A DNA stretch of 30,562 nucleotides from a virus, in IMG/VR virus record IMGVR_UViG_3300021961_007337, positions 1 to 30,562 of that record; one strand, given 5' to 3'. The notes below the pieces were generated by a model. The model was not told the DNA's origin. It made no database searches and was given only the letters and a program-made list of their open reading frames with translations. How positions within the stretch are numbered: position 1 is the first letter of the stretch; the number at the start of each line of letters is the position of its first letter. The translations under genes and the position numbers were made by a program. Shown one piece after another: positions 6,927 to 19,679 of this stretch.

Positions 6927-7499
6927 TTATGTGACTAACAGTTTAGGTATAGTGTCATACAAAGATAAAATTTCTTTAGCCCATTTTATTTTATCTTTTA
7001 TTCGCTGACCGGGAGGATGGGACGATGACCACAGCTCTAAATTTTCTATACGGTTATCATTTCGCACACCATTTATATGGTGAACGGTTTCATGCGGGGT
7101 GAGCTTTCTATTCAAAAATTTGGACATAACTAATACATGTTCTAGTTCGTATGTACGGGAGGATGAGCGAACAAATTGTGTATTCGTTTCTGTGATGTAT
7201 ACCATTACATATCCATCGCGGTTAATCCATCGACCACCGGACCAATTATGAGAGAGTTTTCCTTTTTGGCGTCTACGTTCATTACTAGCACAACCACAAC
7301 TTTTGGTGTTTTTACGACGAAGATTGTTCGCCAATACTTCTGTGATTTTGCCGCATTGGCATTGACATACCCATTGTCTGGCGGCAGAACCAGACGGAAA
7401 ATATTTCATGTTTCCCTTTGAAATAACCGTTAATTTACCGAATATTTTACCGGTTAAATCTTGTGAATTGGGTGCTGGTTTTCCTTTTTGCTGAGCCAT
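6927..7499 (-). CDS. Free-standing HNH homing endonuclease
   Basis: A 190-residue protein. The N-terminal third (TGKIFGKLTVISKG, then WVCQCQCG and KSCGCA) is the AP2-type/zinc-finger-like region found in many phage HNH homing endonucleases. The C-terminal part has YELEHVLVMSKFLNRKL and ETVHHINGVRNDNRIENLEL, the His-His...Asn...Asn core of the HNH nuclease. These enzymes cut cognate sites and spread their own gene by repair. It lies on the opposite strand between gp45 and gp44, a junction also used by homing genes in other T4-like phages, and is clearly more AT-rich than its neighbours. The start at 7499 was chosen for GGGAGAG six bases upstream; an ATG five codons earlier overlaps that site. 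Confidence 0.9.
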   Translation of the reverse strand: MAQQKGKPAPNSQDLTGKIFGKLTVISKGNMKYFPSGSAARQWVCQCQCGKITEVLANNLRRKNTKSCGCASNERRRQKGKLSHNWSGGRWINRDGYVMVYITETNTQFVRSSSRTYELEHVLVMSKFLNRKLTPHETVHHINGVRNDNRIENLELWSSSHPPGQRIKDKIKWAKEILSLYDTIPKLLVT

Positions 7500-7518
7500 G
7501 TTATACTCTCCCATTGAC

Positions 7519-13025: not shown

Positions 13026-13054
13026 TTGACATTAGGGGGTGTCTAGAGTAAAAT
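13026..13054 (+). promoter_or_regulatory. Near-consensus sigma70 promoter, TTGACA-N17-TAAAAT
   Basis: Exact -35 TTGACA (13026-13031), 17-base spacer, -10 TAAAAT (13049-13054). The ATG at 13061 is six bases after the -10 box, so the start site falls on the start codon. It heads the accessory methyltransferase block. Confidence 0.85.
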
Positions 13055-13060
13055 ATAGGT

Positions 13061-15388
13061 ATGTCAAAAGTCGCCAAACGTGCTGTGGCCCGACGAAACA
13101 TCAAGTCTCGACTCGCCCGTCGTCGGAAGAGTGCACCTACTGTCGTGGAGCCGGGTATTGTCGTTGAGCGCATGTTCGTTTACGTGTGGGAAGATTTGTA
13201 CACCCGAGGCGACGTCAAGTTTGGTGAACACTTCAATAAGTTCGCGTCCGATATCGATGCCCGAGCGGATGTCGCGACGTATATCCGATCGTCGCTCACT
13301 CGCCAGAAATACAAGTTCGACGAGAAGCAAATTGTCATTCATGCGGTCATCGACGTGACGGACATCGCCCGTCGTGTCGGGAAACTGTATCCGAACGCGA
13401 AGATGGACGACTACATTCGTCGCGAAGCCGCGCTGCCTGGTCGCATCGCGATTCGTGATAAGAAAAGCGAATTCCATCGAGTCAAGCACATTGATGCGTT
13501 CGTCGCACAGATTCAATCGTGGTGTGACCGTCAGGGTCAGACCCGAGAAGTGGTGACTCTCTCACTCGCGCAGATTCGTCAAGTAGAAGCCACTTTGCGG
13601 GCCTTCGACGACGGACACCGTGTCATCCTCGCGGAACTTGCCCCACGATTCGGGAAAACAATCTACGCGATGGCGATCGCACGAGAACTGAATGTCCCGC
13701 TCATCGTGTTTACGAGTTACGTGCTCACGTCCTTCACGTCGGTGATTAACGACATCAACCGGTTCGAGCAATTTGCCAACATGGTGCTCGTTGATACGAC
13801 CGAAGACGGATGGGAACAACAGGTGACGGACGCCCTCGCGGCGGACAAACAGGTGGTGGCATGTGTGTCGCTGTGTAAGGGTGCATACCGCGAAGCACGG
13901 TTTACCTTCCTTGCAAAACAGCGCGTCAACCGTCTGTGGATCGTTGATGAGGCGGATTACGGCGCGCATCAGAAAAAGCAAGCGTCCGTACTCCAGAAGT
14001 ACACCAAGAAGGACCGCGTGATTCTAATGACGGGCTCCGGTGGCGACCGCGCGGTGTCGTCGTGGGGGGTTGACACGTACCTCTCGGTCACGTATCCTGA
14101 ACTCTTGGTGAATAAGCGGCAACCTACGCCTGCTAATATTCCCAAACTGAAATACTTCACCCATGACCGGCGCCGCGACGAGATGTATCCGAATCTGGTC
14201 TATCTCCAGTTGAGCTTCGGGCCATTCGTGGAAAAGATTCTAAAGTATTGCCCGAATACGAAGATTGAAGAGCTGGTGTCAATGACAAAGATGACCGCCG
14301 ACCCTGATATGATGACAGGGTTCATCACCACGTTGTTTCAGGCGCTTTTTCATGGTGTCAGGGTGCCGCAGTTAGCAATAAATCGGTATATTCCAAACCG
14401 TCGCACCCCCACCGTCTCGATCGTATTCGTCAGTGCGGCCACGAAGATTAAAAACTTGCAGCGGTTGGTGGAGATTGTCAAAGGGGCGATCGGAACGACC
14501 TGTGACGTTATCGGTATCCACGGCGAAGAAACCACTGGGCGTGACGCGGAAAATATGGTCCGCGAAAGACTCAACGCAATCAAGGATGCAGGGAATAACA
14601 GGAATCTGGTCATCATCGCCGCACAGATGGCGCAGCGGTCCTTCAGTGTTCCCGAAATCACGGAGACGTATCTGATGTACGATGCCGGTGATGCCGCGGC
14701 AACGTTACAGAAAGCGTCTCGCTGCTTGACTCCTAACGGAACCGACAAAATCGGCTATGTCATCAGCGTCTCGTTCGATCCAAACCGTGATGACAAGATG
14801 GATACGCAGATTGATGCGGCTATCGAGAACATCGCAACATCGTCGAACATCTCACGCGCATCGGCAGCGAAAGTGCTGTTCGATAACGTTGAGTTCTGGG
14901 AAGCCGTGAATGGACAGCGGGTGCGCGTCATCGCAAGCCGTTATCTGGAACAGCTTCAGTCAGCACCGTATCGTCTCGGTCGCGTCCTCGGGCGTCTTCC
15001 GAAAATCGAGTCATTCCCTGACGAGATTCGACAGTCGTTGCTGGCGTCGTCCTGCAAGTCCGCAACGGCACCGCGTCAAGCGGTCTCGCTCAAGGGTAAG
15101 ACGTATGTGCCAGTCGTGGGTGCGGTGTCGTCGCGGACACCCTCCGCTAAGTTGGATAATCAAAAAATCCGCGAGGCGGCGTACGCTATCTATGAACACG
15201 TCGCTGTGTTTTTTCACGGTACACTCGCAACGACGGTCGATGATATGTTAACGGCACTCAAAACCAATACGACGTTCCAGACGGAAGTCGAGTCGATGGT
15301 AAAGGTGCATTGGACGACGGTGCATTATCTGCTAAACCACCCCGATGTGCGGAAGAAGCTCGATTGGACGCTGACGGTTGGTCGATAA
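13061..15388 (+). CDS. Large SF2-type helicase/ATPase of the modification block
   Basis: A 775-residue protein. After a basic N-terminus (KRAVARRNIKSRLARRRK) and an unrecognised region, a helicase-like core starts near residue 170. It has a Walker A variant APRFGKT (about 193-199), Walker B/DEAD box IVDEADYG (about 292), and a motif III-like MTGSGG. A second RecA-like lobe holds VSIVFVSAA, VIGIHGEE, LVIIAAQMAQRS and QKASRCLTP as a motif VI candidate. The Arg-Phe before GKT resembles ATPase subunits tied to restriction-modification and phage helicases; a nuclease domain was not seen. It is followed 18 bases later by a DNA methyltransferase. The start is fixed by a near-consensus promoter ending six bases before the ATG. 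Function in DNA modification, restriction or anti-restriction is inferred from context. Confidence 0.7.
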   Translation: MSKVAKRAVARRNIKSRLARRRKSAPTVVEPGIVVERMFVYVWEDLYTRGDVKFGEHFNKFASDIDARADVATYIRSSLTRQKYKFDEKQIVIHAVIDVTDIARRVGKLYPNAKMDDYIRREAALPGRIAIRDKKSEFHRVKHIDAFVAQIQSWCDRQGQTREVVTLSLAQIRQVEATLRAFDDGHRVILAELAPRFGKTIYAMAIARELNVPLIVFTSYVLTSFTSVINDINRFEQFANMVLVDTTEDGWEQQVTDALAADKQVVACVSLCKGAYREARFTFLAKQRVNRLWIVDEADYGAHQKKQASVLQKYTKKDRVILMTGSGGDRAVSSWGVDTYLSVTYPELLVNKRQPTPANIPKLKYFTHDRRRDEMYPNLVYLQLSFGPFVEKILKYCPNTKIEELVSMTKMTADPDMMTGFITTLFQALFHGVRVPQLAINRYIPNRRTPTVSIVFVSAATKIKNLQRLVEIVKGAIGTTCDVIGIHGEETTGRDAENMVRERLNAIKDAGNNRNLVIIAAQMAQRSFSVPEITETYLMYDAGDAAATLQKASRCLTPNGTDKIGYVISVSFDPNRDDKMDTQIDAAIENIATSSNISRASAAKVLFDNVEFWEAVNGQRVRVIASRYLEQLQSAPYRLGRVLGRLPKIESFPDEIRQSLLASSCKSATAPRQAVSLKGKTYVPVVGAVSSRTPSAKLDNQKIREAAYAIYEHVAVFFHGTLATTVDDMLTALKTNTTFQTEVESMVKVHWTTVHYLLNHPDVRKKLDWTLTVGR

Positions 15389-15406
15389 ATACAAGGATAC
15401 TATATT

Positions 15407-16570
15407 ATGTTGTTTCGACATGATATCAACATTGACCTGTTGATTGATGACCTGTTGAATAAGATTCCGCAGCCGGTGTGGAAATCCTCAACGACCACGT
15501 TCCTCGATCCCGCCGCTGGTGGTGGACAATTCCTGAATCGCATTGTCACGAAGCTGCGGCTGTATGGACATAGCGACGCTAACATCCGTCGTCGTGTCGT
15601 TGGTGTCTTTGAAACCCTTATCGCGCGGAACTACGCCACGCGGATGGGTGTCATGGGCACTCTCATTTGTGATATACTAGAGGTTAACTATATGAACTTT
15701 GATGTCACTTGCAGCAATCCGCCGTATCAAGACGGGACTGGCAAATCCAGCAATAAACTCTGGAAACAGATTGTTGAGGATTCGCTGAAGCGACTCTCCC
15801 CCGGTGGATATATGGCTTTCGTGACGCCGCCCTCGTGGATGTCACCGGGTAGTCTCTATGACGATCTGATGGTCTACGACATGCAGTGGGTCAACCTCGA
15901 TGTGAAGAAGCACTTTAGCGTGGGAAGTGATTTTAGCGCCTGGGTGCTGCGAAAGCAGGCACCTAAGGGCACGACGAAGTTTGTCACACCCACGGAGACG
16001 CTGACGGTGGAGCATGATGAGTTCCCGTTCCTCCCGTCACGTATCGATAAGCATTCGCTGTCGATTACGAAGAAGCTGCTGGTGGGACCGAGGTTTGATA
16101 GTTTCATTAAAAATAATGAAAATCATTCGACCAAGGCCAACCATTTGTCTAAAACTAAAGATACCACTCATAAGTGGATTGTTCGTCATACTAATGTCCA
16201 AGATAGGTGGAGTAACAAAAAACCGGCAGAATATGATGTACCAAAGGTCATGCTTACAGAAAGCGGGAATCCCATTCCCGTGTATTCAGATGCTTGCGGT
16301 GTGAGCGAACATATGTTTTACATCAAGGTCAAGAACGCGACTGAAGGTAAGCGACTGGTGAAGGTGCTGTCGAGTAAACTCTATCAAGTCCTACTGAAAG
16401 ACAGCAATGGTGTGAAGGGGATGTGGAAGTATAGCGGGTGGAATCAGTTGGCGATTGTCCGCTCTCTGCCGGCTGTAGACCGTTCGATTGATTGGACCGA
16501 CGAGATGCTCTATGAGCACTTCAAACTCACGAAGGATGAGATTGCGTATGTCGAACAGTATGCCAAATAA
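15407..16570 (+). CDS. DNA N6-adenine methyltransferase, gamma-type (Eco57I/TaqI-like)
   Basis: A 387-residue protein. SAM motif I FLDPAAGGGQFL at residues 32-43 precedes catalytic motif IV Asn104-Pro-Pro-Tyr107 (SNPPYQDG), the order of gamma-class adenine methyltransferases, then GGYMAFVTPPSW. The C-terminal half is the expected target-recognition region. Inside it, bases 16090-16310 (residues about 228-300) are far more AT-rich, with codons unlike the flanks, suggesting a swapped segment. The N-terminus is short and lacks the usual TGEVFTP region, which the next gene has instead. AAGGA lies 9 bases upstream of the ATG; a GATAAATA box upstream overlaps the helicase stop codon. Confidence 0.85.
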   Translation: MLFRHDINIDLLIDDLLNKIPQPVWKSSTTTFLDPAAGGGQFLNRIVTKLRLYGHSDANIRRRVVGVFETLIARNYATRMGVMGTLICDILEVNYMNFDVTCSNPPYQDGTGKSSNKLWKQIVEDSLKRLSPGGYMAFVTPPSWMSPGSLYDDLMVYDMQWVNLDVKKHFSVGSDFSAWVLRKQAPKGTTKFVTPTETLTVEHDEFPFLPSRIDKHSLSITKKLLVGPRFDSFIKNNENHSTKANHLSKTKDTTHKWIVRHTNVQDRWSNKKPAEYDVPKVMLTESGNPIPVYSDACGVSEHMFYIKVKNATEGKRLVKVLSSKLYQVLLKDSNGVKGMWKYSGWNQLAIVRSLPAVDRSIDWTDEMLYEHFKLTKDEIAYVEQYAK

Positions 16571-17033
16571 CATTGAACGTTCCGACGAGCGCATCAAGCA
16601 AACCGGCGAAGTCTTTACGCCCGCACCGCTCGTGAATGAGCTGCTCGACCGCATTCCCCGTGAGGTATGGTCGAATCCCGAGAAAACCTTTCTCGATCCG
16701 TCCTGCGGTGATGGCAATTTCCTTGTCGAAGTTCTCCGCCGGAAGATTGCACACGGGAGCACGCCGACGCAAGCCCTCCAGACGACCTACGGGGTCGAAC
16801 TCATGTCGGACAACGCCGAGGCGTGTCGGTACCGACTGCTAGAGATTGCGGGAGACACGGAAGACCACCGGCGGATTGTTGAACACAATATTGCCTGTGC
16901 GGATGCACTGACATTTAATTATTGGAAACCCACGTTGTTTGGGGATACGGAATCGGCTCCGACACGGGCAAAGAAGTCCAAGAAGAAAAACGTAGTCACA
17001 TCAAATACTACTCCTATTGATGCACTAGTGTGA
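16548..17033 (+). CDS. Methyltransferase-like protein lacking the catalytic motif, 161 aa
   Basis: The protein has the N-terminal part of an adenine methyltransferase: TGEVFTPAPLVNELLDRIP, motif I TFLDPSCGDGNFL (residues about 47-59), and YGVELMSDNAEACRYRL for SAM ribose binding. It ends with a short basic tail (RAKKSKKKN) and never reaches an NPPY motif. It overlaps the end of the complete methyltransferase gene by 23 bases. It could be a partner subunit, a SAM-binding accessory protein or a truncated relic. Two in-frame starts exist (16548, 16560); the first was chosen, having AAGGA about 12 bases upstream, which is weak. Confidence 0.6.
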   Translation: MSNSMPNNIERSDERIKQTGEVFTPAPLVNELLDRIPREVWSNPEKTFLDPSCGDGNFLVEVLRRKIAHGSTPTQALQTTYGVELMSDNAEACRYRLLEIAGDTEDHRRIVEHNIACADALTFNYWKPTLFGDTESAPTRAKKSKKKNVVTSNTTPIDALV

Positions 17034-17035
17034 AT

Positions 17036-17548
17036 ATGGTGCATACCCAACACAATACCGGCCATCAAGAGTGGTATACTCCTGAATGGATTATCGAGGC
17101 GGCCCGGCGCACAATGGGGCGAATCGATCTTGACCCCGCCTCGAACCCTATCGCGAATCAATGGATTCGAGCCGACCGCTACTTTACTCACGAGCAGAAC
17201 GGATTGCTTCACGAATGGTCGGGCTGCGTCTGGCTTAACCCGCCGTATGCCAATAAACTGATGACTGCATTTATCGACAAACTGGAACAGTCATTGCCGA
17301 CAATGGAGTCGGCGTGTGTACTCACCAATAATGCCACCGAAACGCATTGGGGTCAACAATTATTGCGAATCTCGTCGGCAATATGTTTTCTTTCGCGGCG
17401 GGTGAAGTTTCTCACACCAGATGTCACGGTTAAGCACACGGGGTTGCAAGGTCAGATGGTGAGCTACATCGGCCCAGATGCCCCGACATTTATCGCCAAC
17501 TTTAATTCATACGGGCGTGTGTTTGTGCGTGGTATACTAACACGATGA
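17036..17548 (+). CDS. Phage DNA N6-adenine methyltransferase (Dam family)
   Basis: A 170-residue protein of the phage Dam-like family: EWYTPEWIIEAARR, then LDPAS at residues 32-36, YFTHEQNGLLHEW, the catalytic WLNPPY (Asn68-Pro-Pro-Tyr71), and VLTNNATETHWGQ. Full length for the family and apparently active. It methylates adenine in DNA; its target is unknown. The start is ATG at 17036 just after the previous stop; a GTG two codons earlier overlaps it. It ends in an ATGA overlap with the next methyltransferase. Confidence 0.88.
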   Translation: MVHTQHNTGHQEWYTPEWIIEAARRTMGRIDLDPASNPIANQWIRADRYFTHEQNGLLHEWSGCVWLNPPYANKLMTAFIDKLEQSLPTMESACVLTNNATETHWGQQLLRISSAICFLSRRVKFLTPDVTVKHTGLQGQMVSYIGPDAPTFIANFNSYGRVFVRGILTR

Positions 17549-17571
17549 CTCACACCATTCTTCACGGTGAT
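17529..17571 (+). repeat. Direct repeat copy 1: promoter plus methyltransferase start
   Basis: This 43-base segment recurs at 19547-19590 with one inserted base and two substitutions. It covers the TATACT promoter and the codons for MTHTIL. The two copies flank the live methyltransferase and PD-(D/E)xK genes. Confidence 0.85.
17530..17538 (+). promoter_or_regulatory. Extended -10 promoter TGG-TATACT
   Basis: TATACT at 17533-17538, six bases before the ATG at 17545, lying inside the end of the preceding gene. The same promoter-plus-start arrangement recurs at 19548. Confidence 0.65.
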
Positions 17572-18450
17572 AGCCGCACTCTGTTGTCCTCGTATGCGGA
17601 GCATACGTTCCATGCCTGTATTACGGATCCTCCCTATGGCATGAATATGGCCCAGTGGGATACGCAGGTACCACCTATCGACCATTGGCAGTCGGTGTAT
17701 CGTGTGCTGCGACCCGGCGCATTTTGTCTCGCATTCTGTTCACCCGAATTGTATCATCGGTTAGCCACGAATGTAGAAAACGCGGGCTTCGTCATCAAAG
17801 ATCAAATTATGTGGATGACCACAACCAAGATGCCGAAGTATAACCGACTGAAACCCGCACATGAACCTATCGTGGTCGCGCAGAAGCCATATAGCGGCTC
17901 GCTCGAATCTAATCAGGCAACGTGGGGCTGTGGGTTGATCGATACAGAAACGACCCGCGTACCGTGGGACAAGGCACCACCGAAAGGCTGGGTCGCAGGC
18001 GGTGTCAAGCGTCGTCAGTTTGGAAAACAGGGTAAGACGACGGGTACGCAAGAAGAGTTTGGTACCGTCGATGCAAATCCCGCCGGACGGTATCCATCGA
18101 ATATTATTGGTGACGTGCTCCCCGAACATCAAAAATATTTCTATGCTCCGAGGGCGACCCGCACCGAGAAGGGTGCAGATAATGATCATCCGACGGTAAA
18201 ACCATTGTCACTTATGGAATATCTGGTGCGAATATATACTTCTGTCGGGGCACATGTTCTTGACCCGTTCTGTGGAAGTGGTACGACGGGCGTGGCCGCG
18301 GTTCGACTCCAGCGTCACTTTGTGGGGATTGATATTGACCCCGCATACGTCATGATAGCAAATCAGCGATGTGCAGCGTCAGTTACTTCTTTGGAGAACA
18401 CTAATGATATCTTTTCAACAATTTTACCTCTCGGAAATGAAACTCGATGA
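17545..18450 (+). CDS. Beta-class DNA methyltransferase (N4-cytosine/N6-adenine)
   Basis: A 301-residue protein with the beta-class order: catalytic Asp28-Pro-Pro-Tyr31 (CITDPPYGM) first, then a recognition region, and SAM motif I DPFCGSG (residues 240-246) followed by HFVGIDIDPAYV near the C-terminus. DPPY alone does not decide between adenine and cytosine. A DNDHPTVKPLSLMEYL motif before motif I is typical of the family. The start overlaps the previous stop by four bases and follows a TATACT box by six bases. Its last 47 bases overlap the next gene. Confidence 0.9.
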   Translation: MTHTILHGDSRTLLSSYAEHTFHACITDPPYGMNMAQWDTQVPPIDHWQSVYRVLRPGAFCLAFCSPELYHRLATNVENAGFVIKDQIMWMTTTKMPKYNRLKPAHEPIVVAQKPYSGSLESNQATWGCGLIDTETTRVPWDKAPPKGWVAGGVKRRQFGKQGKTTGTQEEFGTVDANPAGRYPSNIIGDVLPEHQKYFYAPRATRTEKGADNDHPTVKPLSLMEYLVRIYTSVGAHVLDPFCGSGTTGVAAVRLQRHFVGIDIDPAYVMIANQRCAASVTSLENTNDIFSTILPLGNETR

Positions 18451-19519
18451 GGGAGGAAAATCTGACGCGATTCGGTATAATAGCGAACTTGGTGTATTAT
18501 ACGGTTTGATAGGAAATGGAAAATTTAATCCAAAACGACCAGAAAAGTCTCTTCCCGCATCAAAGTTAAGCAACCCTACGTCGTGCTATCGTGACATCGT
18601 CCGTTTAGTAGCACCTAACTTTATGCCTAACATCTTTATGATTTGGGCAAATCGTGCACCAATCATTAAAGAAAAAATTCTTGCCAAGCAAGGAAGTCTG
18701 CCTCGCAAATTTGGATGGAGTGGTGGCCAAAACATTGCCGGTGGTGTGTCAGATATTGCATTTGCGAGTGGAGGTACGCTCGGGATTAGTGTTAAAGCAG
18801 AAGGTGGAATCACTCTCGCCAATCTTAGCCCAAAGGCCCTCGGGATTCAAACAGACAAAGGTGTTGACGTATTTGACATGTATGCGGGTAAAGAATATCT
18901 GTTAATGAAGCAACAGATTTTTAAAGATGTTCTGACTGCTGCAAAGCGGCAACCGAATAAACCGCTGATTCCAATCAGTAAATACGGAATTACCTACGTC
19001 TCTAGAACAACGCAATTCCAGATTAAGTTGAAAACTGGCGTTCTAAACATGAGTGAGGCCGACATTATGAGTGCGGTGCGAAAGAACGCACAATGGCAAC
19101 GTGTGTTTGGTGATTGGTTTCAGGCAAACTTTATTGAGAAGCGGTCGTATGCGGCTCCCCTGTACAATAAAATTGCCAAAGTCTTCGAACTAACAATGGA
19201 AAAAAATTTAGCCAAGGCTAGCAAACTCGCGGGAATTTTACGCTTTGGTGATAGACCCTACTATTATCTCAGCGCGAAGAATTTATATTACGTGCCATCA
19301 TTTCATGAGGTTACGGATCTTCAACTGAAGAAAATTCGATACGCGAAACCAAAGGGCACCGCACAGCGATTCATCGCGGAAATTGGTCGAGCAGATAGTG
19401 ATGACAATGCCGAACTGGACATTTACATTCGATATGCAAATGGCATGTTTGAAAGTAATCCAACTGTGCGAATTCAAAGTTTAAAAAATCCGCAATATAT
19501 CGGATGGGAATTATTATAA
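18404..19519 (+). CDS. PD-(D/E)xK-like protein, candidate nuclease, 371 aa
   Basis: A nuclease-like core is visible in GGVSDIAFASGGTLGISVKAE (residues 113-133, given here only by its key residues Asp117, Ser129 and Lys131): an acidic residue, a beta hairpin, then S-x-K in place of the usual (D/E)-x-K. Similar SD...GxSxK proteins occur in environmental T4-like phages without known function. It begins MISFQQFYLSEMKL. The gene is markedly more AT-rich than most of the window, suggesting separate origin. GGAG lies seven bases before the ATG at 18404, which overlaps the end of the methyltransferase gene by 47 bases. Pairing with methyltransferases suggests a restriction-type nuclease, but the Ser substitution and lack of a known relative leave this open. 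Confidence 0.6.
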   Translation: MISFQQFYLSEMKLDEGGKSDAIRYNSELGVLYGLIGNGKFNPKRPEKSLPASKLSNPTSCYRDIVRLVAPNFMPNIFMIWANRAPIIKEKILAKQGSLPRKFGWSGGQNIAGGVSDIAFASGGTLGISVKAEGGITLANLSPKALGIQTDKGVDVFDMYAGKEYLLMKQQIFKDVLTAAKRQPNKPLIPISKYGITYVSRTTQFQIKLKTGVLNMSEADIMSAVRKNAQWQRVFGDWFQANFIEKRSYAAPLYNKIAKVFELTMEKNLAKASKLAGILRFGDRPYYYLSAKNLYYVPSFHEVTDLQLKKIRYAKPKGTAQRFIAEIGRADSDDNAELDIYIRYANGMFESNPTVRIQSLKNPQYIGWELL

Positions 19520-19546
19520 ATAACGCACCACCCACAAATTGATTTA

Positions 19547-19590
19547 GTGGTATACTATACACGATGACGCACACCATTCTTCGCGGTGAT
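19547..19590 (+). repeat. Direct repeat copy 2: promoter plus start of the methyltransferase fossil
   Basis: Second copy of the segment at 17529-17571, carrying the TATACT promoter and the codons for MTHTIL of the decayed gene. Confidence 0.85.
19548..19556 (+). promoter_or_regulatory. Extended -10 promoter TGG-TATACT of the fossil gene
   Basis: TATACT at 19551-19556, seven bases before the fossil's ATG at 19564. It may still transcribe into uvsX. Confidence 0.5.
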
Positions 19591-19679
19591 GTCCGTGAAC
19601 AACTCAAATCGAACTCAACCCCGAGTATGCCGCACTGGCCCAACAGCGTATTGAGACCGTCACGCTTCCCCTTTCGTGA
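19564..19679 (+). pseudogene. Internally deleted beta-class DNA methyltransferase remnant
   Basis: The first codons read MTHTILRGDVREQLK, nearly the start of the live methyltransferase at 17545 and typical of the family's N-terminus. After a frame change, bases 19608-19679 read IELNPEYAALAQQRIE and end TVTLPLS-stop, the classic C-terminus of the same family (motif around the SAM-binding strand 2). Everything between, including the catalytic DPPY and motif I, is gone: about 116 bases remain of a gene that should be near 900. In the first frame the ORF continues as a meaningless 46-codon sequence to 19704. The uvsX promoter overlaps its stop codon. Confidence 0.85.

What the first reader, a model, noticed from the sequence alone, without database searches (positions are those of the whole stretch)
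13061..19679. Helicase plus four methyltransferase-type genes plus nuclease-like gene inserted between gp43 and uvsX
In the T4 order polymerase and uvsX are near neighbours. Here 6.6 kb of accessory DNA separates them: an SF2-like ATPase with its own near-consensus promoter, a gamma-type adenine methyltransferase, a half methyltransferase, a Dam-family enzyme, a beta-class methyltransferase, a PD-(D/E)xK-like protein and a methyltransferase fossil. Three different methyltransferase classes plus a translocase-like ATPase and a nuclease-like protein resemble a restriction-modification or superinfection-exclusion island carried by a lytic phage. Its composition in terms of gene types does not match any named defence system I know.
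Basis: partly seen in the sequence, partly recalled or inferred. Interest (0 to 1): 0.85.

Follow-up and report, generated by a model that had tools for sequence, protein, structure and literature searches.

The report
Two-piece phage DNA methyltransferase with motor
Between its DNA polymerase and recombinase genes this phage carries a DNA-modifying machine in which the piece that should hold the methyl donor and the piece that should do the chemistry are separate proteins next to a DNA motor, a layout that recurs in hundreds of phages and in bacterial chromosomes.

Summary
Of the six genes only the first three form a conserved unit: A (SF2 motor, 13061-15388), B (gamma-type MTase with NPPY, 15407-16570) and C (half-MTase, 16563-17033). 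D, E, F and the fossil are separate accessory genes; F was unlinked in all 15 loci examined. C is no decayed gene: 431 IMG/VR relatives were confirmed, and every distinct C examined (60 viral, 75 from cellular assemblies) lacks the catalytic NPPY motif while keeping the SAM-binding motif. In chromosomal operons (C, B, T5orf172-SF2 helicase) B is the mirror image: NPPY intact, first glycine of SAM motif I replaced by lysine in 55 of 55. Natural fusions join A to B (sister phages) and B's catalytic half to C (27 Aeromonas phage records); one phage has four tandem Bs, near-identical N-terminally and divergent C-terminally, before a single C. Best explanation: a bipartite N6-adenine methyltransferase (C supplies the SAM site, B catalysis and target recognition) on a Type ISP-like motor, probably a restriction-modification machine. 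Sister phages carry a different A-B allele at the same site with C 97% identical. Restriction is unproven; the window's B keeps its own motif I and A's nuclease domain is uncertain.

The parts
13026..13054 (+). sigma-70-like promoter TTGACA-N17-TAAAAT
   Evidence: 11 of 12 consensus matches; identical in sister L032, upstream of a different allele
13061..15388 (+). A: SF2 helicase-like translocase with an N-terminal alpha/beta domain (residues ~35-125); likely real start ATG 13172
   Evidence: ResIII weak; AF2 pLDDT 78.7; Foldseek top hit Type ISP LlaBIII 4xqk, E=5e-11, also HsdR and SauUSI; homologues directly upstream of B-C in many phages
15407..16570 (+). B: gamma-type N6-adenine methyltransferase, catalytic motif NPPY, C-terminal target-recognition half
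   Evidence: Eco57I E=7e-6; alignments and motif list
16563..17033 (+). C: SAM-binding half-methyltransferase (FTP motif X, DPSCGDGNF motif I, VELM motif II; no catalytic motif)
17030..17548 (+). D: Dam-family (PF05869) adenine methyltransferase, accessory
   Evidence: 95% identical in sister L032
17545..18450 (+). E: beta-class N6/N4 methyltransferase, accessory and exchangeable
   Evidence: replaced by a 28%-identical enzyme in sisters; 63% identical in S-SKS1
18404..19519 (+). F: conserved phage protein of unknown fold with nuclease-like invariant residues (E28, D117, S129-x-K131); not part of the A-B-C unit
19559..19679 (+). remnant of a beta-class methyltransferase gene (start copied from E, frameshifted tail)

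Best explanation
A, B and C are subunits of one ATP-driven DNA-modification machine. B and C together make one adenine-N6 methyltransferase: C binds S-adenosylmethionine (motifs X, I, II) and B carries the catalytic NPPY loop and the target-recognition part. A is an SF2 double-stranded-DNA translocase of the restriction-enzyme kind that B tethers to the target site. The phage methylates its own DNA and, most likely, A uses translocation to trigger cleavage or blockage of unmodified DNA (host or rival phage), i.e. a split Type ISP-like restriction-modification machine. Shown: conserved gene unit; complementary motif loss in C and in bacterial B; natural A-B and B-C fusions; tandem Bs sharing one C; allele exchange of A-B around a constant C. 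Inferred: physical complex, SAM in C used by B, methylated base, restriction. D and E are extra orphan-type methyltransferases added to the same modification locus.
For: Unit: A-B-C in this order in L001, S-CAM7 and many IMG/VR loci; 34 of 38 distinct C loci with enough flank have an NPPY gene within 6.5 kb, 26 of them abutting, against 0 of 10 control loci centred on F. Complementary loss: 0 of 60 viral and 0 of 75 cellular-assembly Cs have NPPY; motif I GxG is intact in the C group; bacterial B motif I is DPxxK[ST]GVF in 55 of 55 with NPPY intact. Fusions: A-B in one chain in sister L032 (1155 aa) and about twenty other loci; B catalytic half + C in one chain in Aeromonas phages PX29, Aeh1, phiAS5 and others. 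Bare halves: L107, L092, the second S-CAM7 copy, and Actinobacteria. Tandem Bs: L040 has four Bs with 90-98% identical first 80 residues and mostly 16-50% identical C-terminal halves before one C. Motor: Foldseek best hit LlaBIII, whose published order is nuclease-SF2-coupler-gamma MTase-TRD (PMC4872093), the order of the fused phage protein. Allele swap: L032 differs between 13062 and 16463 while C stays 97% identical.
Against: In the window itself B retains a plausible SAM motif I (DPAAGGGQF), so B could be a complete enzyme and C auxiliary. No complex could be modelled; the AF2 model of the natural B-C fusion was only moderate (pLDDT 69, pTM 0.62) and Foldseek gave no significant full-length match. 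The N-terminal domain of this A is not demonstrably a nuclease: profile comparison with the bacterial T5orf172 domains gave 1.5% probability. No expression, methylome or restriction data exist here.
Confidence: 0.68

Rival explanations
1. B is a self-sufficient methyltransferase, and C is a SAM-sensing or allosteric regulatory subunit that does not supply the methyl donor for B's chemistry; A is a motor that spreads methylation or removes proteins, with no restriction. The module is a pure anti-restriction modification device.
For: B of the window subgroup keeps DPxxGGGQF motif I; jumbo phages commonly carry several methyltransferases, interpreted as protection against host restriction (PMC7824862); a dedicated nuclease is not proven in this A.
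Against: Bacterial Bs have a fixed glycine-to-lysine change in motif I, fused phage Bs have lost motif I altogether, bare NPPY halves exist with only C beside them, and in Aeromonas phages C is fused directly to an NPPY half that has no other SAM half. A motor is unnecessary for simple protection.
Confidence: 0.2
2. C is a decaying duplicate of the N-terminal half of B (a gene fragment) and the island is an unordered pile of horizontally acquired methyltransferases, as is common in phage early regions.
For: C is homologous to the N-terminal half of B (C profile hits B of L031 and L040 at 1e-9 to 1e-12); D, E, F and the fossil do look like an accumulating, exchangeable pile.
Against: C is conserved across hundreds of phages and in bacterial operons with SAM motifs intact and NPPY always absent; 96.6% DNA identity of the C-D block in sisters while both neighbouring blocks are replaced.
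Confidence: 0.07
3. The module is primarily a recombination or replication-associated device (SF2 helicase next to pol, uvsX and gp41), with methylation marking phage DNA for the helicase.
For: Location between gp43 and uvsX; T5orf172-type nucleases have been proposed to act in phage recombination (PMC7824862).
Against: In T4 this interval holds modification and exclusion genes rather than replication genes; relatives of the module sit elsewhere in other phages (L018, L020, L027) and in bacterial chromosomes; A's closest folds are restriction motors.
Confidence: 0.05

Closest known systems
Type ISP restriction-modification enzymes (LlaGI, LlaBIII)
   Same: SF2 translocase upstream of a gamma-class N6-adenine MTase and TRD; A's best structural match is LlaBIII; fused phage A-B has the same domain order (PMC4872093)
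   Different: Separate polypeptides in the window, the SAM half detached as C, no Mrr-family nuclease domain seen; several Bs can share one C
Unnamed bacterial operon C / B / T5orf172-SF2 helicase (Bacteroides, Bifidobacterium, Clostridia; bare-half form in Corynebacterium, Rhodococcus, Janibacter)
   Same: Same three components with the same split of motifs
   Different: Order C-B-helicase; B motif I carries lysine; helicase has a clear T5orf172 (GIY-YIG superfamily) domain (E about 1e-8). PADLOC matches parts of it to models derived from Type IIG and Type II entries (PDLC03626, PDLC03375)
T-even-phage GIY-YIG-MTase plus C pairs (Klebsiella KpV477, Shigella PSD9) at the T4 dam locus
   Same: C half next to an NPPF protein without a SAM motif
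   Different: LEM-3-like GIY-YIG nuclease domain fused to the MTase, no SF2 motor in between
Type III R-M (Res/Mod) and Type I R-M (HsdR/M/S)
   Same: Translocase + MTase; ResIII-type motor; exchangeable specificity
   Different: Mod and HsdM are complete MTases; no detached SAM half; Type I uses separate HsdS
Circularly permuted EcoKI-like Dam enzymes noted in jumbo phages (PMC7824862)
   Same: Permuted motif order, as in the Aeromonas B-C fusion
   Different: The cited example APU01582.1 is not a C-family protein (no profile hit); the fusion in the same phage is APU01675.1
METTL3-METTL14 type two-subunit methyltransferases (from general knowledge)
   Same: Two related subunits, one of them degenerate
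   Different: Here the losses are complementary: one subunit keeps SAM binding, the other catalysis

Membership tests
gamma-class N6-adenine DNA methyltransferase (B plus C) | motif order X-I-II-III-IV(NPPY) on one chain | tested here: not met
   C has X-I-II only, B has IV with a motif I but no motif X FTP; met only when both chains are taken together
gamma-class N6-adenine DNA methyltransferase (B plus C) | catalytic [DN]PP[YF] present | tested here: met
   NPPY in B
Type ISP R-M | SF2 translocase of the restriction-enzyme type | tested here: met
   Foldseek best hit LlaBIII 4xqk E=5e-11, HsdR, SauUSI; overall TM-scores are low (about 0.3)
Type ISP R-M | all functions on a single polypeptide | tested here: not met
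   three genes in the window; A-B fused in sister L032 but C still separate
Type ISP R-M | N-terminal Mrr-family nuclease domain | tested here: inconclusive
   N-terminal domain of A predicted as bb-aa-b-aa, no Pfam nuclease hit
T5orf172 / GIY-YIG superfamily (N-terminal domain of A) | profile similarity to T5orf172 | tested here: inconclusive
   window subgroup vs bacterial T5orf172 alignment 1.5% probability; phage subgroup L046/L048 98.2%; bacterial helicases Pfam T5orf172 E=2e-8
Restriction-modification system (any type) | endonuclease activity blocked by the cognate methylation | not testable with these tools
   needs enzyme or plating assays
BREX, DISARM, MADS, Hma | signature genes of the system adjacent | tested here: not met
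   PADLOC and NCBIfam hits only to generic MTase models, far below curated cut-offs where these exist
bacterial C/B/T5orf172-SF2 operon family | detached SAM half C + NPPY protein B + SF2 helicase as neighbours | tested here: met
   window A-B-C; bacterial loci, 35 of 39 with all three by motif search

The most novel reading that the evidence does not exclude
A class of restriction-modification machine, shared by phages and bacteria, in which one dedicated SAM-binding half-subunit (C) powers several interchangeable catalytic/target-recognition subunits (B) coupled to a GIY-YIG-SF2 motor (A), so that new sequence specificities are gained by duplicating or swapping B alone; phages carry it as a portable weapon against host and rival DNA.
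Probability: 0.35. Interest if true: 0.88.

Novelty: new variant of a known kind. Interest (0 to 1): 0.74.

Why it matters
If right, adenine methyltransferases can run with their SAM site and their catalytic site on different proteins, and hundreds of phages and many bacteria use this. It would explain a family now annotated as hypothetical proteins or truncated methylases, give a simple route to multi-specific modification (four target-recognition subunits sharing one SAM subunit in L040), and add a phage-borne, ATP-driven restriction candidate. Isolated phages carry it (Synechococcus phages S-CAM7, MA01 and Bellamy; Klebsiella KpV477; Aeromonas PX29 and Aeh1), so it can be tested directly.

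Tried and rejected
Near-identity search of the 12-kb region in phage records: no match. PDB sequence searches with the fused A-B protein, with F and with T5orf172 gave nothing useful; C gave only weak gamma-MTase hits, CamA best. AF2 of the natural B-C fusion (PX29) to test whether the two halves complete one sheet: moderate model, Foldseek inconclusive, so not used as evidence. GIY-YIG nature of the window's own A N-terminal domain: considered from sequence and predicted topology, but the profile test failed, so not claimed. C as a pseudogene: rejected. Six-gene defence island as one system: rejected. The literature searches that I made (open-access PMC only) found no description of this split system; REBASE and subscription papers could not be searched, so prior knowledge there is possible.
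Full report
What is there. The window is a complete 30,562-bp IMG/VR fragment of a T4-like phage (DNA polymerase 36-37% identical to cyanophage and Methylophilales-phage polymerases). Between gp43 (ends 12994) and uvsX (starts 19707) lie six genes with overlapping or nearly abutting ends: A helicase 13061-15388, B methyltransferase 15407-16570, C half-methyltransferase 16563-17033, D Dam family 17030-17548, E beta-class methyltransferase 17545-18450, F unknown 18404-19519, then an E-like fossil. T4 has imm.1, imm, gene 42, b-gt and segA in the same interval: there too the gap between polymerase and recombinase holds superinfection-immunity and DNA-modification genes.

Which genes belong together. 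Relatives of A found in IMG/VR and in S-CAM7 are followed by B and C in the same order. A profile of C found 431 confirmed relatives in IMG/VR (a lower bound, since it depends on peptide patterns). Among the 80 fetched, the genes upstream of C follow four layouts: helicase-B-C; helicase split into two genes-B-C; helicase and B fused (1130-1270 aa)-C; and a shorter SF2 protein plus a small protein-B-C. Of 38 distinct C loci with at least 2.5 kb on both sides, 34 have an NPPY-containing gene within 6.5 kb and 26 of those abut C; three of the four exceptions have a B that the simple motif pattern missed but the B profile finds. As a control, 0 of 10 loci centred on F have one. D is shared with the sister phages only, E recurs near such modules but is exchangeable, and F occurs in 15 other viral contigs, none with A, B or C.

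Sister phages. L028 and L032 match the window at 92-98% DNA identity over the polymerase, C-D, uvsX and gp41. Between 13062 and 16463 the window's A and B are replaced by a single 1155-aa helicase-methyltransferase fusion (intact in L032, broken in L028) that shares only 48% identity in the B part, except for an identical 35-residue C-terminus; between 17533 and 19673 E and F are replaced by an unrelated-looking beta MTase. The promoter TTGACA-N17-TAAAAT just upstream is identical in both alleles. So the motor-specificity part and the accessory part are exchanged by recombination while C (97%) and D (95%) stay.

The split. C contains motif X (EVFTP), motif I (DPSCGDGNF) and motif II (VELM-x-DN) and ends before motif IV. 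None of 60 distinct viral or 75 distinct cellular-assembly Cs has NPPY, and motif I GxG is intact in the C group. B has NPP[YF] in nearly all cases, but its N-terminal half is variable: the window subgroup keeps DPxx[GA]GGQF, whereas fused and other subgroups have lost motif I. In chromosomal operons found with C (147 confirmed relatives in GTDB representatives, some of them probably phage contigs in MAGs), B reads DPxxK[ST]GVF in 55 of 55 cases, with NPPY intact. Bare halves also exist: L107 (C then a 279-aa protein starting MKFDVVVGNPPY), L092, a second copy in S-CAM7 (317 aa, NFPF, followed by C) and Actinobacteria (346-aa NPPY half downstream of the helicase). In Aeromonas phages (PX29, Aeh1, phiAS5; 27 records) one ORF starts M[RH]FDYMIANPPY, runs through the B-type C-terminal signature WTDDELFEKF and continues into a complete C: a natural fusion with permuted motif order. 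In L040 four tandem Bs are 90-98% identical over the first 80 residues and mostly 16-50% identical in the target-recognition half, followed by one C; L064 shows the same with three. These facts fit C as a shared SAM subunit and B as interchangeable catalytic/recognition subunit.

The motor. AF2 of A (20-sequence alignment) gave pLDDT 78.7 and pTM 0.70, with two RecA-like cores and helical C-terminal parts. Foldseek's best PDB hit is the Type ISP enzyme LlaBIII (E=5e-11), with HsdR and SauUSI also high; global TM-scores are low (about 0.3), as expected when domain orientation differs. Published LlaGI/LlaBIII order is Mrr nuclease, SF2 cores, coupler, gamma MTase, TRD (PMC4872093); the fused phage protein has SF2, linker, MTase, TRD in the same order with a different N-terminal domain. 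The bacterial helicases start with a T5orf172 domain (Pfam E=2e-8 and 1e-8). One phage subgroup matches these domains at 98% probability; the window's subgroup does not (1.5%), although its predicted topology (two strands, two helices, strand, two helices) is compatible. KpV477 and PSD9 fuse an LEM-3-like GIY-YIG domain to their B at the position of T4 dam.

How it works. Shown: a conserved three-gene unit, complementary motif loss, A-B and B-C fusions, tandem Bs per C, allele exchange. Inferred: C and B make one adenine-N6 methyltransferase; A is tethered through B and translocates on ATP; in at least some members a GIY-YIG-type domain cuts. For the phage, the machine would mark its own genome and act on unmarked DNA. 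Confidence 0.68 for the bipartite-MTase-plus-motor statement as a whole; restriction itself is less certain (about 0.5, a personal estimate).

Known or new. PADLOC, NCBIfam and Pfam have no curated system for the trio; PADLOC's REase_MTase_IIG and MTase_II models cover pieces, so relatives sit in databases as Type IIG or Type II entries without the split being apparent. Open-access literature searches gave no description. I therefore rate it a new variant of restriction-modification-type systems, not a new category.

Noticed in passing
L040:824-6495: Four tandem B genes with near-identical N-terminal and divergent C-terminal halves ahead of one C; L064 shows three. Looks like a target-recognition diversification array.
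   Followed up: partly
L028:561-1487 and L032:8742-9533 (-): Sister phages have insertions inside DNA polymerase and uvsX that the window lacks (possible introns or homing elements); uvsX is split at residue 207.
   Followed up: no
window 6927-7514 (-): HNH endonuclease gene on the opposite strand between clamp (gp45-like) and clamp-loader genes, in a low-GC stretch (0.42); probable homing endonuclease.
   Followed up: no
window 18404-19519: F has markedly lower GC (0.42) than its neighbours and belongs to a widespread, unannotated phage family with invariant E28, D117, S129-x-K131; in L011 and L016 it also lies near uvsX.
   Followed up: partly
window 17526, 19553, 19682 and others: Repeated TGNTATACTA-like strings (extended -10 look) shortly upstream of E, the fossil and uvsX; possible promoters.
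   Followed up: no
window 13061-13171: A's annotated start gives a lysine/arginine-rich, low-confidence 37-residue extension; homologues start at the equivalent of ATG 13172.
   Followed up: partly
L018, L041, L043, L045, L054, L066: The helicase is split into two genes between its two RecA-like cores in many phages, a rare arrangement for SF2 enzymes.
   Followed up: partly
L019:6409-6972: Bellamy-type modules carry an extra 187-272 aa protein between the SF2 gene(s) or B and C, with no family hit.
   Followed up: no
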